34,195 bases of DNA from Ignavibacteria bacterium (GTDB lineage Bacteria; Bacteroidota; Ignavibacteria; Tepidaquicellales; OLB5): contig JACSRQ010000092.1 of the NCBI GenBank assembly GCA_014879675.1, forward strand, positions 1 to 34,195, given 5' to 3'. A program made the translations under genes and the position numbers. Shown one piece after another: positions 8,464 to 18,658 of this stretch. Below the pieces are notes generated by a model. That model ran no database searches and was not told the DNA's origin. It worked only from the letters and a program-made list of their open reading frames with translations. Position 1 is the first letter of the stretch. The number at the start of each line of letters is the position of its first letter.

Positions 8464-8868
8464 ATGGATTTCGCTGATGATAAAAGGAATTGCTACAAAT
8501 ACTCTGACCTTACAGGCAAGATCATCGGAGCAGCCATGCAAGTGCATTCTGCATTAGGAAACGGATTCCCAGAAGTCATATACCAAAGGAGCCTGGCAAT
8601 TGAACTTGAAAAGTCAGGAATCCAATTCAACAGGGAAATTCAACAAGATGTATTTTATGAAAATATCAAAGTGGGAACGAGAATTGCGGACTTTTTAGTT
8701 GAAGGGAAAATTCTGGTTGAGTTAAAAGCACTTAGTGAGATCAATGAAACTCATTACTCACAGATTTTGAATTATCTGAAATCCTTCAGGCTGGAAATCG
8801 GTTTATTGATAAATTTCGGTTCAAAAAGCCTTCAGTTTAAACGGTTCATAAACTCTAAACTACAATAA
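8464..8868 (+). CDS. GxxExxY-family protein
   Basis: This 134-residue protein carries the defining GFPEVIY (G-x-x-E-x-x-Y) motif after the helix AAMQVHSALGNG. A PD-(D/E)xK-like core follows: IADF, then ILVELKA, with Asp and Glu-x-Lys spaced as in nuclease folds. The family (PDDEXK_3) is common in Bacteroidota and relatives, but its function is not established. The gene starts 9 nt after mutS and lies 32 nt before tadA, so it is probably cotranscribed. A link to DNA repair is only a guess from position. Confidence 0.85.
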   Translation: MDFADDKRNCYKYSDLTGKIIGAAMQVHSALGNGFPEVIYQRSLAIELEKSGIQFNREIQQDVFYENIKVGTRIADFLVEGKILVELKALSEINETHYSQILNYLKSFRLEIGLLINFGSKSLQFKRFINSKLQ

Positions 8869-11630: not shown

Positions 11631-12620
11631 ATGTACGGAAACGCACAGATAGACCCAAAAGAAAAAGCCAAAAGCCTTACAGATGGCGAAGACCCTGTTT
11701 TACTCGCAGAATTTGAAGCAAGGGTAAGCGCAGGAGAAAAAGTTGAGCCTAAGGACTGGATGCCGGCAGCTTACCGCAAACAGCTTATCCGCATGATAGA
11801 ACAGCATGCTCACTCAGAGATCATAGGCGCATTGCCGGAAGGCACATGGATAACCCGGGCACCGGGATTCCGCAGGAAGCTTGCGCTGATGGCAAAAGTG
11901 CAGGATGAGGTTGGCCATGCACAGCTTCTCTACAGCGCCGCTGAAACGCTGGGCAAGACTCGCGAAGATATGATAAATGACCTCATCAACGGGAAATCCA
12001 AGTATTCCAATGTATTCAACTATCCCGCTATGACCTGGGCTGATACTGCGATCATTGCATGGCTTATAGATGCGGGCGCGATAATTAATCAGGTAACAAA
12101 CTCCAAGGGTTCATACGGACCATATTGCCGTGCGCTTGAAAGAATTTGCAGTGAAGAATCTTTCCACCTGAAATACGGACATGATAATGTTGTGTATCTC
12201 GCAACGGGCACGCCGCAGCAAAGGGATATGGTTCAGGATGCGCTTAACAGGTGGTGGACCCCTATCATGCATTTCCACGGCCCGCCGGATAAAATCTCGC
12301 AGCATACGGAAGTACTCATGAAATGGAAAGTTAAGATGGCATCAAATGATGATATGCGCCATAAGTTCCTTGAAGAATATGTGCCTAAGATATGGGATCT
12401 CGGCTTAACTATACCTGATCCGAATCTTAGGAAAAATCCGGATACAGGCGTGTGGGAGTACACCGAGCCGGACTGGGAAGAATTCAAAAGGGTTATAAAT
12501 GGCGATGGCCCATGCAATAAAGAGCGCCTGCAGGTAAGAAGGTGGGCTGAAGAAAAAGGCGCATGGGTAAGAAAAGCGCTGTTGAAGGCTGAAACTAAAT
12601 ATACTGTTCCGCTAGCATAG
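11631..12620 (+). CDS. paaA: Phenylacetyl-CoA epoxygenase (ring-1,2-epoxidase) subunit PaaA
   Basis: Catalytic diiron subunit of the multicomponent enzyme that epoxidises the aromatic ring of phenylacetyl-CoA. It follows E. coli PaaA closely: DWMPAAYRKQLIRMIEQHAHSEI, then KVQDEVGHAQLLYSAAETLG, then CSEESFHLKYGH. The expected diiron ligands are present: E63, the E93/H96 pair in DEVGH, and Glu175 or 176 with H179 in EESFH. Lys, Glu and Trp residues near the C-terminus (NKERLQVRRWAEEKGAWVR) also match. At 329 residues it is about 20 longer than the E. coli protein. AGGA precedes the ATG. It heads paaA-S23-paaB-paaC-paaD. Confidence 0.95.
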   Translation: MYGNAQIDPKEKAKSLTDGEDPVLLAEFEARVSAGEKVEPKDWMPAAYRKQLIRMIEQHAHSEIIGALPEGTWITRAPGFRRKLALMAKVQDEVGHAQLLYSAAETLGKTREDMINDLINGKSKYSNVFNYPAMTWADTAIIAWLIDAGAIINQVTNSKGSYGPYCRALERICSEESFHLKYGHDNVVYLATGTPQQRDMVQDALNRWWTPIMHFHGPPDKISQHTEVLMKWKVKMASNDDMRHKFLEEYVPKIWDLGLTIPDPNLRKNPDTGVWEYTEPDWEEFKRVINGDGPCNKERLQVRRWAEEKGAWVRKALLKAETKYTVPLA

Positions 12621-12627
12621 CTAAAGA

Positions 12628-12686
12628 TTGCAAGTTACAGGTTTCAAGTTACAAGTTTTTCAGGTTTTAGATTTCAGGTTGAAGTA
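12628..12686 (+). repeat. Degenerate heptanucleotide array, left arm
   Basis: From 8 nt after the paaA stop the sequence runs in 7-nt steps related to AGTTACA (AGTTACA, GGTTTCA, AGTTACA, AGTTTTT and so on) and becomes less regular beyond 12660. Bases 12632-12657 are the reverse complement of 13125-13150 apart from 3 positions, of which 2 would be G-U pairs in RNA. Confidence 0.75.
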
Positions 12687-12731
12687 TAGAAGACAATTTC
12701 AATTTAAGAGTAATACACCTTAATTACTATT

Positions 12732-13103
12732 ATGGGAAAAGTTAACAGGTTTGAGGACCTTGAGGTTTGGCAAAAGGGAATGCAGCTTGCGGAAGATATA
12801 TTTTTTATTACCCGGAATGAACAATTTGCCAGAGAATACGGTATAAAAGATCAGATCATAAGAGCATCAATCTCGATTTCAAACAACATATCTGAAGGGT
12901 TTGAATATGATAACCGAAAGGATTTTATTAAATTTCTCAGATATTCAAAAGGTTCCACCGGCGAAGTCAGAAACATGGTGGTTTATCTAAAAAGAGTAGG
13001 CTTGATTAGCAATGAAGTTCATGATAAACTGACAAACGATGCAGTAATCTTATCAAAACAGCTTTTTGCTTTCATAAATTATTTAAAGAATAATAATAAC
13101 TAA
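12732..13103 (+). CDS. S23 / four-helix-bundle protein (23S rRNA intervening-sequence family)
   Basis: This 123-residue protein has the family signatures in order: FEDLEVWQKGMQLA at the N-terminus, KDQIIRASISISNNISEGFEY in the middle, then FLRYSKGSTGEVRNMVVYLKRVGLI. Members were first found encoded in intervening sequences of 23S rRNA and are widespread as free genes. They form helical pentamers; the biochemical role is unsettled. It interrupts paaA and paaB, and 7-nt repeat arrays of opposite sense lie on both sides. No such gene belongs to known paa operons, so it looks like an inserted cassette. Confidence 0.88.
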   Translation: MGKVNRFEDLEVWQKGMQLAEDIFFITRNEQFAREYGIKDQIIRASISISNNISEGFEYDNRKDFIKFLRYSKGSTGEVRNMVVYLKRVGLISNEVHDKLTNDAVILSKQLFAFINYLKNNNN

Positions 13104-13110
13104 TAATGGT

Positions 13111-13187
13111 TACCTGCAACTTGTAACTTGTAATTTGCAACTTGTAACTTACAACATGCAGCATGTAACCTATAACCTGTAACTGAA
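13111..13187 (+). repeat. Degenerate heptanucleotide array, right arm
   Basis: About ten 7-nt units follow (ACTTGTA, ACTTGTA, ATTTGCA, ACTTGTA, ACTTACA, ACATGCA, GCATGTA, ACCTATA, ACCTGTA, ACTGAAC). They begin shortly after the S23 stop and reach to 2 nt before the paaB ATG, leaving no Shine-Dalgarno sequence. The unit is the reverse complement of the one in the left array. Confidence 0.8.
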
Positions 13188-13189
13188 CT

Positions 13190-13603
13190 ATGAGTTCTAT
13201 AGATCCGAGAATAGACCGGCTTGAGCTTCCTGCCAATGAGGACGGGAAAGAAGTAATGAACAAGCTTGAACAGTGGGAAACCTACGAAGTTTTCCACCAG
13301 AAAAAACGCGGCGACCAGCATATTCACGTTGGTATAGTACACGCCGTGACCCCTGAAATGGCTATTATACTTGCCAAAGAGCAATACACGCGCCGCAGGC
13401 AAACATCAAATCTATGGGTGGTTAGAACTGCCGATGTGACTGCTACAGCTTATGATGATGCAGATATGTTTGAATCAACCCCCGAAAAGACATACCGCGA
13501 GGCAAGTGACTATTATTGCATGGATAGGATACGCAAGTACCAGCTGGAGCATGGTATTAAAGATAGGAAAGAAGACAGAAGAAAGGTTAAGGAGGCAGAA
13601 TAA
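13190..13603 (+). CDS. paaB: Phenylacetyl-CoA epoxygenase subunit PaaB
   Basis: Small structural subunit that bridges PaaAC modules in the epoxygenase complex. The segment WETYEVFHQKKRGDQHIHVGIVHA, followed by MAIILAKEQYTRRRQTSNLWVVR, is characteristic of PaaB. At 137 residues it is longer than the ~95-residue E. coli protein, through both termini (about 25 extra N-terminal residues before the conserved start, and a basic C-terminal tail). The ATG comes straight after the heptanucleotide array and has no Shine-Dalgarno sequence. The stop is 3 nt before paaC. Confidence 0.93.
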   Translation: MSSIDPRIDRLELPANEDGKEVMNKLEQWETYEVFHQKKRGDQHIHVGIVHAVTPEMAIILAKEQYTRRRQTSNLWVVRTADVTATAYDDADMFESTPEKTYREASDYYCMDRIRKYQLEHGIKDRKEDRRKVKEAE

Positions 13604-14377: not shown

Positions 14378-14381
14378 GCAT

Positions 14382-14424
14382 GGTTACAGGTTTCAGGTGA
14401 CAAGTGACAAGTGACAGGTTGTTA
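14382..14424 (+). repeat. Heptanucleotide array, third copy
   Basis: 7-nt units (GGTTACA, GGTTTCA, GGTGACA, AGTGACA, AGTGACA, GGTTGTT) begin 4 nt after the paaC stop, in the same sense as the left arm at 12628. The 13 bases GTTACAGGTTTCA occur in both (12634-12646 and 14383-14395). Confidence 0.75.
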
Positions 14425-15161: not shown

Positions 15162-16307
15162 ATGAACTACCTTAAATGTAAAGTGTGTTTCGGCACCTAC
15201 ACGAATTGCCCTTCTTCACAAGCCAGCCCAAATAAATCTTTCAATTTGAGAACACTGCTTTCTTTTTTGAGTGTATTGTATTCATTAATATTGTTTATTG
15301 GCTGCGGCGACGAAACTGTAACTGTAAAAAGTTACGTATTCGAAACACCCCGTTTTAACTGGCGGACATCTGAAATATATGCAACAGGATTTATTGATCT
15401 ATGGGCACAGGATACCTCAAAGATATTTCTGCTGGACTATTACCAAAGATCCCTCGCTATGTATTCGGGAGGAGTTCTCAACCGGTACAATGCCGGAAAT
15501 TTTGAAATGGTTTCAATGTCAGGTATATCTCAAAATGAGATAATGATATTCGGAGTTTCTTCTGATACAGAAATTACATTCATAAAATTCAATGGTGGCG
15601 GATTTGAGAACTATCCCTCTGGGGTTAACATGCCTGAATCATACGGCAATACATTTCCGGCATGTTATGTTAGCTCAAATGAAGCATGGATCTGCTCAAA
15701 AAATGGTATAGCCAGGCTTATTGGCAATAGTATCACTGCATTTCAGTACCCGGATTCATTTACAACTCCATCGGATATTTTCAAAAGTTCAAGCGGAACG
15801 ATGCAATTCATTAGCGCCGGAACATCGTCAGGTCAATCAGTTCAGAGAATTTATGAGCTTCAGGATACTGCCTTTGTGAAAGTATATGAAATGTCAATTC
15901 CGGAAAGAAATTCTTCGAGGTATGATCTTAGAGAGCTCAATGGCAGGAGTTATATCCTCGCTTATACAGATGATGAGTACAATCAAATAGCCTGCTTCAG
16001 AATTTTAGATGGCTACAATATCAGTGAGATAATTTGTATGGATGCAGGTATCTACATGTTTTACGGCATCGCAGGTACAAGCTTTCAAAACATGGCAATG
16101 GTTGCAATAACAAACGAAACTGTCTATAACAGCAAAAGGGGTATTCTCTTTTGGGACGGTGTAATTCTAAGCAGGGAACTTGAATTGCCGCCCCCGCCAG
16201 CGTTCATGGAATATAGATATTTAATTAGAAATCCTGATAATAATACAATTCTAATGATGTATGCCGGAGATAACACAACGAAAATCCTAACCGGTACACG
16301 AAAATAA
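15162..16307 (+). CDS. Putative lipoprotein of unknown function
   Basis: I do not recognise a named family. A hydrophobic stretch at residues ~30-47 ends in the lipobox-like LFIGC, with Cys48 followed by Gly-Asp. This suggests a lipid-anchored envelope protein with an unusually long N-region. A TTG at 15246 would give a normal-length signal peptide (LRTLLSFLSVL...) and is a real alternative start. The mature part is rich in Ser, Gly and aromatic residues in repeated strand-like stretches (DLWAQDTSKIFLLD, EAWICSKNGIARL), as in beta-propeller proteins. It is convergent with the next gene, with a shared terminator between them. Confidence 0.7.
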   Translation: MNYLKCKVCFGTYTNCPSSQASPNKSFNLRTLLSFLSVLYSLILFIGCGDETVTVKSYVFETPRFNWRTSEIYATGFIDLWAQDTSKIFLLDYYQRSLAMYSGGVLNRYNAGNFEMVSMSGISQNEIMIFGVSSDTEITFIKFNGGGFENYPSGVNMPESYGNTFPACYVSSNEAWICSKNGIARLIGNSITAFQYPDSFTTPSDIFKSSSGTMQFISAGTSSGQSVQRIYELQDTAFVKVYEMSIPERNSSRYDLRELNGRSYILAYTDDEYNQIACFRILDGYNISEIICMDAGIYMFYGIAGTSFQNMAMVAITNETVYNSKRGILFWDGVILSRELELPPPPAFMEYRYLIRNPDNNTILMMYAGDNTTKILTGTRK

Positions 16308-17674: not shown

Positions 17675-17737
17675 GGCTGTAAAATTAGATTTAATGTTTT
17701 TATATAATAACGCTGTTGTTATATAACACCGCTGATG

Positions 17738-18658
17738 TTATACAATAACCCTGTTGACTCTTTTCTGAACTAAAAATAAAACTATCATAAGTAAATTTAA
17801 AGGCAAAATGCAGATTATAAGGAAAGCTTCCATATTATTCAAAAGTGCCGCAGCAACACAAAGTGTAATGTGGGTAGTTGAGCCCACATAGCTCCACAAT
17901 CTAAGCAGCACCCTGTTGTTTGCAAAATAAACTTTGGGGTTAGGTTTCTGCTCTGCCTGCGACTCTTCGTGATCTTTCTGTATCTTAAGCTGAAGCGCGG
18001 AATATTTCAGATATATACTTATTAAAAACCTCTGGAAAAAATGTGAGCCTTTATCGTCATCTTTCAGCCTTTGGCTTTCCTGTTCATATTCCTTTATCTC
18101 TTCTATAATATTCGATGCTTTGCCGTAAACAACTTCAAGAAATTTATTCCGGTAGAAATCAAAATAAAAGGCCTGTACTGCAGAAGATATTCCTCCCAGA
18201 ATACTCAACACCCAAATATATGTTACAGGGGGCCATTGAAGTATGGCATTTCCCCAAAGCCCGATCTCATGGTAGCCAAACTGATTGGTTAGCCCGATAC
18301 CTATACCCACAAATACAAATGTGCTCACAATGTAATCCACAAAGCCGTCAACTATCCTGCCAACCTTAGTGCCGTTCTTTTTCAGCCGGGCTATCTGCCC
18401 GTCAGCGCAATCAAGCACATTACTTGTAAAATATAAGAAGGCACCGATGGCAAGGAAGGTGAAGCCGCCAAATCCGAATGCAATGCCGGCGCTGCACCCT
18501 ATCAGGAGTGCAGCTACGGAAACCATATCAGGCGTTAAATTGGTTGAATAAGTTGCCTTAACGAAAAGGAATGCAAGCGGACGAAATAGAATAAGATCGA
18601 ATACTTCTTCTACCTCTATAGCTTTAAGTGATGCTTTATATTGGCTGTATAAGCTCAA
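17738..18658 (-). CDS. CDP-alcohol phosphatidyltransferase family protein
   Basis: Integral membrane enzyme that joins a CDP-linked lipid or alcohol to a second alcohol in phospholipid synthesis. The signature D86-G87-x2-A90-R91-x8-G100-x3-D104-x3-D108 is complete (DCADGQIAR, then GRIVDGFVD), so the metal site is intact. Several transmembrane segments flank it, and a charged cytoplasmic loop (EEIKEYEQESQRLKDDDKG) lies at ~185-205. The alcohol acceptor cannot be assigned. It lies 58 nt downstream of the aminotransferase gene, on the same strand, and may share its pathway. Confidence 0.88.
   Translation of the reverse strand: MSLYSQYKASLKAIEVEEVFDLILFRPLAFLFVKATYSTNLTPDMVSVAALLIGCSAGIAFGFGGFTFLAIGAFLYFTSNVLDCADGQIARLKKNGTKVGRIVDGFVDYIVSTFVFVGIGIGLTNQFGYHEIGLWGNAILQWPPVTYIWVLSILGGISSAVQAFYFDFYRNKFLEVVYGKASNIIEEIKEYEQESQRLKDDDKGSHFFQRFLISIYLKYSALQLKIQKDHEESQAEQKPNPKVYFANNRVLLRLWSYVGSTTHITLCVAAALLNNMEAFLIICILPLNLLMIVLFLVQKRVNRVIV

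What the first reader, a model, noticed from the sequence alone, without database searches (positions are those of the whole stretch)
12628..13187. S23 gene in the paa operon framed by complementary repeat arms, like an rRNA intervening sequence in an mRNA
Seen: between paaA and paaB lies an S23 four-helix-bundle gene. Bases 12632-12657 and 13125-13150 are reverse complements at 23 of 26 positions, and two of the three differences become G-U pairs in RNA. The transcript can thus fold into a long stem with the whole S23 gene in the loop. Known: S23 proteins were first found encoded in intervening sequences of 23S rRNA, whose ends pair into stems that are cut out and leave fragmented rRNA. Inference: the same kind of cassette may sit here in a protein-coding operon and be processed, splitting the paa message, or it may be a small mobile element.
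Basis: partly seen in the sequence, partly recalled or inferred. Interest (0 to 1): 0.78.

Follow-up and report, generated by a model that had tools for sequence, protein, structure and literature searches.

The report
S23 gene framed by inverted repeat-arrays
A small gene of unknown function sits between two genes of a phenylacetate operon, inside matching but oppositely oriented runs of a seven-base repeat, and the same layout surrounds many free-standing relatives of this gene in other bacteria, which points to a widespread kind of gene cassette.

Summary
In detail: 23 of 26 positions complementary, two of three mismatches G-U. The arms are degenerate 7-bp tandem arrays, one in each orientation, filling the paaA-paaB gap.

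The layout recurs. Of 63 S23 loci from related genomes, 52 have strong inverted arms, against 6 of 308 control genes; two of those six are themselves a four-helix-bundle gene and a GxxExxY gene. With one locus per synteny group, about 40 of 60 qualify, against 6 of 60 in direct orientation. Unit length differs between S23 groups: 7, 8 or 9 nt. The upstream neighbour lies on the S23 strand in 135 of 139 loci.

Six of ten genomes examined carry the cassette between paaA and paaB; four do not. At another operon junction, distant S23 cassettes with different units occupy the same gap.

Best reading: a gene-plus-arms cassette, like the S23-coding rRNA intervening sequence in content and like REP-RAYT loci in layout. 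Cleavage of RNA is untested, and arm mismatches show no G-U bias. Seven literature searches aimed at this link found no description of it.

The parts
11631..12620 (+). paaA, upstream neighbour; the cassette begins right after its stop codon
   Evidence: TIGR02156 E 7.4e-134; stop 12618-12620
12621..12731 (+). left arm; array of AGTTACA/GGTTTCA-type 7-bp units at about 12627-12685
12732..13103 (+). S23 gene, 123 aa, four-helix-bundle family
   Evidence: PF05635 E 9.7e-31, TIGR02436 E 2.7e-29
13104..13189 (+). right arm; array of the reverse-complement unit at about 13108-13184, ending next to the paaB start
13190..13603 (+). paaB, downstream neighbour
   Evidence: PF06243 E 1.1e-23; NCBIfam TIGR02157 70.8 bits, under its cut-off of 85.45
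14378..14423 (+). one-sided array of the same unit after the paaC stop, without an S23 gene

Best explanation
It is a small gene cassette: one S23 gene, in sense within its host operon, between two arms made of the same degenerate short tandem repeat in opposite orientation. Shown: the architecture, its recurrence around S23 genes, placement in sense after a co-directional gene, junctions with and without it, replacement by a distant cassette at one junction, and unit lengths that differ between S23 groups. Inferred: the arms are the cognate sites of the S23 protein, which in its solved relatives has five chains, and which would read the repeated units on single-stranded RNA or DNA; the arms can close into a stem that loops the gene out, so the cassette sits at operon junctions at little cost. 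It is inherited mostly with its locus and is now and then lost, exchanged or replaced as a unit. It thus resembles a REP-RAYT locus in layout and an S23-coding rRNA intervening sequence in content. How it moves, and whether the protein acts on RNA or DNA, is not known.
For: Inverted arms in 52 of 63 S23 loci of related genomes against 6 of 308 control genes (Fisher p 1.7e-45, loci not independent); one locus per synteny group: mean 40.1 of 60 inverted, 6.0 of 60 direct; cross-locus and direct-orientation controls at background, 0 of 20,000 permutations. Period 7 or 14 is the best period in 48 of 66 upstream and 45 of 64 downstream flanks, 54 of 400 control pieces. GTDB set: 48 of 79 above the cross-locus 95%. 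Unit lengths by group. Upstream neighbour on the same strand in 135 of 139 loci. Junctions with and without the cassette. Replacement at an ABC-transporter junction. Cassette less diverged than its neighbours in G004/G008/G012. S23 under strong constraint there, dN 0.00-0.02. Solved relatives 2gsc and 2rld with five chains each. REP-RAYT loci recovered by the same test, 18 of 19.
Against: 11 of 63 related loci and 37 of 77 GTDB loci stay under the threshold. Many S23 groups sit at conserved places, so mobility is low. Coupling of unit and protein is not significant within genomes (189 of 2000 permutations, 28 pairs) and weak among non-syntenic pairs, so it may be shared descent and not recognition. 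Arrays without an S23 gene are common, also in genomes where no S23 with that unit was listed. No mobility enzyme is known for the cassette, and target-site duplications were not tested. Binding is not shown.
Confidence: 0.6

Rival explanations
1. RNA intervening sequence in an mRNA: the arms pair in the transcript, RNase III cuts the stem and separates the paaA, S23 and paaB messages, as in fragmented 23S rRNA.
For: Predicted stem, 0 of 100 shuffles as stable; placement in sense in operons; RNase III excision of the rRNA intervening sequence (PMC4990558, abstract and introduction read).
Against: No G-U bias in arm mismatches: 110 G-U type against 126 A-C type in 92 loci, not significant in three settings. 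The antisense strand folds almost as well, z -2.30.
Confidence: 0.3
2. Autoregulation: the S23 ring binds the arrays of its own message, one unit per subunit, and tunes expression of itself or of the next gene (compare TRAP; comparison recalled).
For: Tandem units next to the gene; five chains in solved relatives; the GGAGAAATTA gap before paaB in two genomes without the cassette is absent in the filled ones, so paaB start is altered.
Against: Binding by one array would not require two arms in opposite orientation; no binding data.
Confidence: 0.2
3. Bystander: short arrays collect at operon junctions of these genomes by slippage, and the two arms are made alike by template switching between inverted repeats; S23 plays no part.
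For: Arrays without S23 are common and are seen by eye at nine of ten paaC-paaD junctions; both arms of the paa cassette differ between its two subclades while most loci keep matching arms.
Against: Only 6 of 308 other genes have such inverted flanks, and two of these are a TIGR02436 and a GxxExxY gene; direct-orientation flanks are rare, 9 of 140.
Confidence: 0.2
4. A reverse transcriptase, as in diversity-generating retroelements whose Avd protein resembles S23, writes the arrays or moves the cassette.
For: PF05635 resembles Avd (PMC10053308, passages read).
Against: No RVT_1 match in the window's genome; 17 of 59 genomes have one, and counts do not follow those of S23, rho 0.04. The assembly is 94.66% complete, so one could be missed.
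Confidence: 0.03

Closest known systems
S23-coding intervening sequence (IVS) of 23S rRNA genes (PMC4990558; also 16S and 23S insertions of CPR bacteria, PMC11270868, passages)
   Same: S23 ORF inside an insertion of a few hundred bases whose ends are complementary; scattered presence.
   Different: Lies between protein genes of an operon, not in an rRNA helix; arms are short-unit arrays; excision by RNase III is not shown here.
REP-RAYT / REPIN systems (PMC3116915, listing only; otherwise recalled)
   Same: One small gene flanked by inverted repeats of a class of its own, with further repeats dispersed in the genome; Y1_Tnp genes of these genomes score alike in the same test, 18 of 19.
   Different: S23 has no Y1_Tnp domain in Pfam, and the arms are runs of a non-palindromic short unit, not palindromes.
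Avd of diversity-generating retroelements (PMC10053308, passages)
   Same: Related four-helix-bundle fold according to that paper.
   Different: No reverse transcriptase match in this genome; template and variable repeats were not looked for.
TAACTGA heptamer direct repeats of Beggiatoaceae, Cyanobacteria and some Bacteroidetes (PMC4679880, abstract and passages)
   Same: Intergenic 7-nt tandem repeats.
   Different: Described there as direct repeats mostly before start codons; S23, 'four helix bundle' and 'intervening' do not occur in its text.

Membership tests
PF05635 / TIGR02436 (S23, four helix bundle) | profile match over the curated cut-off | tested here: met
   106.6 bits against 33.8; 101.6 against 24
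rRNA intervening sequence | insertion inside an rRNA gene | tested here: not met
   lies between paaA and paaB; no Rfam match in the window
rRNA intervening sequence | complementary ends that can form a stem | tested here: met
rRNA intervening sequence | excision by RNase III | not testable with these tools
   no RNA data; no wobble bias in arms
REP-RAYT | gene flanked by inverted repeats of its own class | tested here: met
REP-RAYT | Y1 (HuH) transposase encoded by the flanked gene | tested here: not met
   PF05635 is the only Pfam match of the S23 protein at E 0.001
REP-RAYT | same repeats dispersed elsewhere in the genome | tested here: met
   31 forward and 21 reverse matches of the unit pattern against 1 and 2 of the backward control, overlapping matches in one array counted apart
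Diversity-generating retroelement | reverse transcriptase in the genome | tested here: not met
   no PF00078 match in G000, 94.66% complete
Insertion sequence or MITE | target-site duplication at the ends | not tested
   junctions were read but not searched for duplications

The most novel reading that the evidence does not exclude
S23 and GxxExxY genes are the core genes of a widespread, unnamed class of tiny operon-junction elements. Each keeps arms of inverted short-unit arrays with its own unit length (7, 8 or 9 nt in S23 groups, about 9 nt for GxxExxY). The protein reads its array and perhaps helps to write and spread it, leaving one-sided arrays after stop codons elsewhere, whose class can switch at one place between species. 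The rRNA intervening sequences would be the special case that landed in an rRNA gene.
Probability: 0.3. Interest if true: 0.88.

Novelty: new variant of a known kind. Interest (0 to 1): 0.74.

Why it matters
PMC4990558 (introduction) describes S23 proteins as having no known function. Here a large share of the sampled free-standing S23 genes come with a repeat of their own in a fixed layout, which gives the protein a candidate ligand that a binding assay can test at once, and which ties rRNA intervening sequences to cassettes in ordinary operons. If S23 reads or spreads the arrays, many short tandem repeats at operon junctions of these genomes would have an owner.

Tried and rejected
Rejected or weakened. 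Chance stem. A known RNA family: no Rfam match in the window. Reverse transcriptase as mover. Selection on RNA pairing seen through wobble: no signal. Strict coupling of protein and unit: weak outside syntenic pairs, not significant within genomes. Defence or phage protein: S23 has no match in PADLOC or PHROGs at E 0.01. Copy numbers of S23 and Y1_Tnp correlate over 59 genomes (rho 0.44), but without correction for kinship or genome size, so no weight is put on it. Counts of arrays against presence of an S23 with the matching unit across 13 genomes gave at most a loose trend by eye; for GATAGTT the tool's backward control is void, because the reversed unit is a rotation of itself. The same-arm comparison is confounded by conserved neighbouring genes and is not used. 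A structure prediction of S23 had not finished and is not used.

Rows left out. Searches fetched 60 of the matches listed (a list that was itself cut), favouring the same genus and strong matches. One search dropped L078 and L101 (contig ends), 64 of 66 left. L006, a weak match, is but not. One search kept the best 80 of 376; one search used 79; one search used 77 of them (two duplicates and one short flank dropped). One search used 40 of 66 loci that pass array thresholds. The groups were put together by hand from the tree and synteny and do not hold all loci. One search counts 63 of 66 and 76 of 78 loci, those with an ORF found on both sides. One search dropped 1 of 20, one search dropped 1 of 33. 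One search ended in an error after its table was printed, its last tally was not obtained, and arrays over 62% of one base were skipped there.

Full report
What is there. The gap between the paaA stop codon (12618-12620) and the paaB start (13190) holds an S23 gene, 12732-13103, on the same strand. Each arm is a run of a degenerate 7-bp unit, left as AGTTACA/GGTTTCA, right as its reverse complement.

Same genome. PF05635 has six matches in the window's genome, five over the cut-off. The flanks of these five show short repeats in opposite orientation left and right of the gene, with a different unit at each (read by eye; inverted scores 45, 40, 53, 41 and 35). The sixth, weak match has none that I see (score 19).

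Relatives. PF05635 matches in 52 of 59 genomes, the own one included. I fetched 60 loci and oriented them together with the own six. In 64 usable loci, the upstream flank against the reverse complement of the downstream flank has a median score of 41, against other loci's downstream flanks 19, and in direct orientation 19; 0 of 20,000 permutations reach the observed sum; 44 of 64 exceed 95% of their row. Lag 7 has the best self-match (0.67 upstream, 0.63 downstream, 0.40 in control pieces), and period 7 or 14 is the best period in 48 of 66 upstream and 45 of 64 downstream flanks, against 54 of 400 control pieces.

Controls. Among 308 genes in 400 kb of a same-genus genome, 6 reach score 32; among 63 S23 loci 52 do (Fisher p 1.7e-45, loci not independent). 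Of the six control genes one is a four-helix-bundle protein (TIGR02436) and one a GxxExxY protein (TIGR04256); the other four were not followed up. As a positive control, 18 of 19 Y1_Tnp loci reach 32; their aligned flanks hold palindromes such as AGCCCCGTAGGGGCG, as expected of REP sequences. Taking one locus per synteny group, on average 40.1 of 60 reach 32 inverted and 6.0 of 60 direct.

Breadth. A scan of GTDB species genomes kept the best 80 of 376 relatives; the titles name many Bacteroidota and also Ignavibacteria, Deltaproteobacteria, Desulfobacca, Nitrotoga, Acidobacteriaceae, Pleurocapsa, Gracilibacteria and a Woesearchaeote, many of them metagenome-assembled, so single assignments may be wrong. 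In 79 usable loci the median is 33 against 18 cross-locus; 48 exceed the cross-locus 95% and 22 the 99%. In the reduced set of 77, 40 reach 32.

Unit and group. In twelve groups that I put together by hand from the tree and synteny, the best unit length is 7 nt in ten, 8 nt in L003/L079/L087 and 9 nt in L070/L071/L099/L119. In the Flavobacteriaceae-type set 8 is the commonest best period, 28 of 58 flanks. Over 40 loci with clear arrays, unit similarity follows protein identity (Mantel r 0.37, 0 of 2000; pairs under 60% identity r 0.28, 0 of 2000), but not significantly within genomes (189 of 2000, 28 pairs). Among non-syntenic pairs the coupling is weak. So most of the coupling is inherited with the locus.

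Place in operons. Both neighbours lie on the S23 strand in 57 of 63 and 69 of 76 loci, the upstream one in 135 of 139.

Junctions with and without it. paaA is found in 9 of 13 same-genus genomes and in G013 of another genus. The cassette lies between paaA and paaB in six of these ten (G000, G004, G008, G009, G012, G013); four have none, with gaps of 10, 10, 23 and 92 nt. In two of the empty junctions the gap is GGAGAAATTA, which looks like a ribosome-binding site and is absent from the filled ones. The six S23 proteins at this site form one clade. Full and empty genomes are intermingled on a tree of PaaA, PaaB and TetR, some forks weak, so losses, gains or both occurred. Between G004, G008 and G012, S23 differs by dN 0.00-0.02 and dS 0.41-0.64, paaA by dS 1.36-2.57, paaB by dS 0.91-2.18, and the arms are 82-95% alike: there the cassette is younger than its neighbours or evolves more slowly. 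These three genomes group together on the host tree (93), so common descent is not excluded. Between the two subclades of the site, arms match within loci (pair means 26-41) better than across loci (16.5-27.5, near background); over all 53 older pairs within exceeds across in 38. G009 is the exception, with weak arms (18).

Replacement. At an ABC-transporter junction L082, L083 and L084 carry one kind of S23 with GATAGTT-type units, and L087 a distant S23 with 8-nt units, in the same stop-to-start gap. L003 and L079 have related S23 genes in opposite orientation beside the same gene.

Second family. GxxExxY genes show the layout too: 16 of 32 above the cross-locus 95%, best mean period 9. One lies in the window at 8464-8868 (27).

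Arrays without a gene. In 434 kb there are 15 period-7 arrays, two of them in the window's paa region, and at most 3 for any other period except 14. Three pairs form hairpins without a gene, one of them A-rich (L143, L157, L158). One-sided arrays often lie right after a stop codon, by eye. At paaC-paaD, without S23, nine of ten genomes show repeat-like sequence after the stop, by eye: GTTACAG type in five, AGGCAAAA type in three, another in one; the tenth, G012, shows none clearly.

How it may work. The solved relatives 2gsc and 2rld have five chains each, and the Xanthomonas protein is described as a homopentameric toroid (PMC4990558, introduction). A ring next to tandem units suggests reading of the units by the ring; this is inference. 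Pairing of the arms in RNA is possible, but mismatches show no wobble bias (110 G-U type, 126 A-C type, 92 loci), so copying between arms at the DNA level, or selection blind to wobble, is at least as likely. The window's genome has no RVT_1 match, which speaks against a retroelement mechanism.

Literature. Ten searches of the open PMC library were run. Seven were aimed at S23 genes with repeats or at S23 itself, one at GxxExxY (29), one at Avd (60), one at REP-RAYT (93). None returned a paper that, from its listing or the passages that I read, links S23 genes to inverted short-unit arrays. I read the abstract and introduction of PMC4990558, passages of PMC4679880, PMC5524665, PMC11270868 and PMC10053308; all other papers were seen in listings only. 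Subscription papers and preprints are not held, so this does not prove absence.

Noticed in passing
window 8464-8868; L126-L129, L190-L218: GxxExxY (PDDEXK_3) genes also tend to have inverted flanking arrays, best mean period 9; 16 of 32 loci above the cross-locus 95%.
   Followed up: partly
window 14378-14423; L174 and L319-L326 at paaC-paaD: Array without S23 after the paaC stop; the unit class differs between species at the same junction, GTTACAG type in five and AGGCAAAA type in three of ten genomes, by eye.
   Followed up: partly
L143 7306-7412, L157 10276-10383, L158 12415-12506: Hairpins of two inverted 7-nt arrays with a short loop and no gene between, like deletion derivatives of the cassette.
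   Followed up: no
L301-L318: Y1_Tnp (RAYT-like) genes flanked by palindromic REP-like repeats, several families per genome; 18 of 19 reach the inverted-arm threshold.
   Followed up: no
L143 11289-11996: Control gene with a very strong inverted-flank score of 81 whose protein matches neither theme at a glance; cause not examined.
   Followed up: no
window 17695-17756: Tandem repeat of a 19-bp AT-rich unit, 3.3 copies.
   Followed up: no
window 15162-16307: 381-aa ORF downstream of paaD without a Pfam or NCBIfam match at E 0.001.
   Followed up: no
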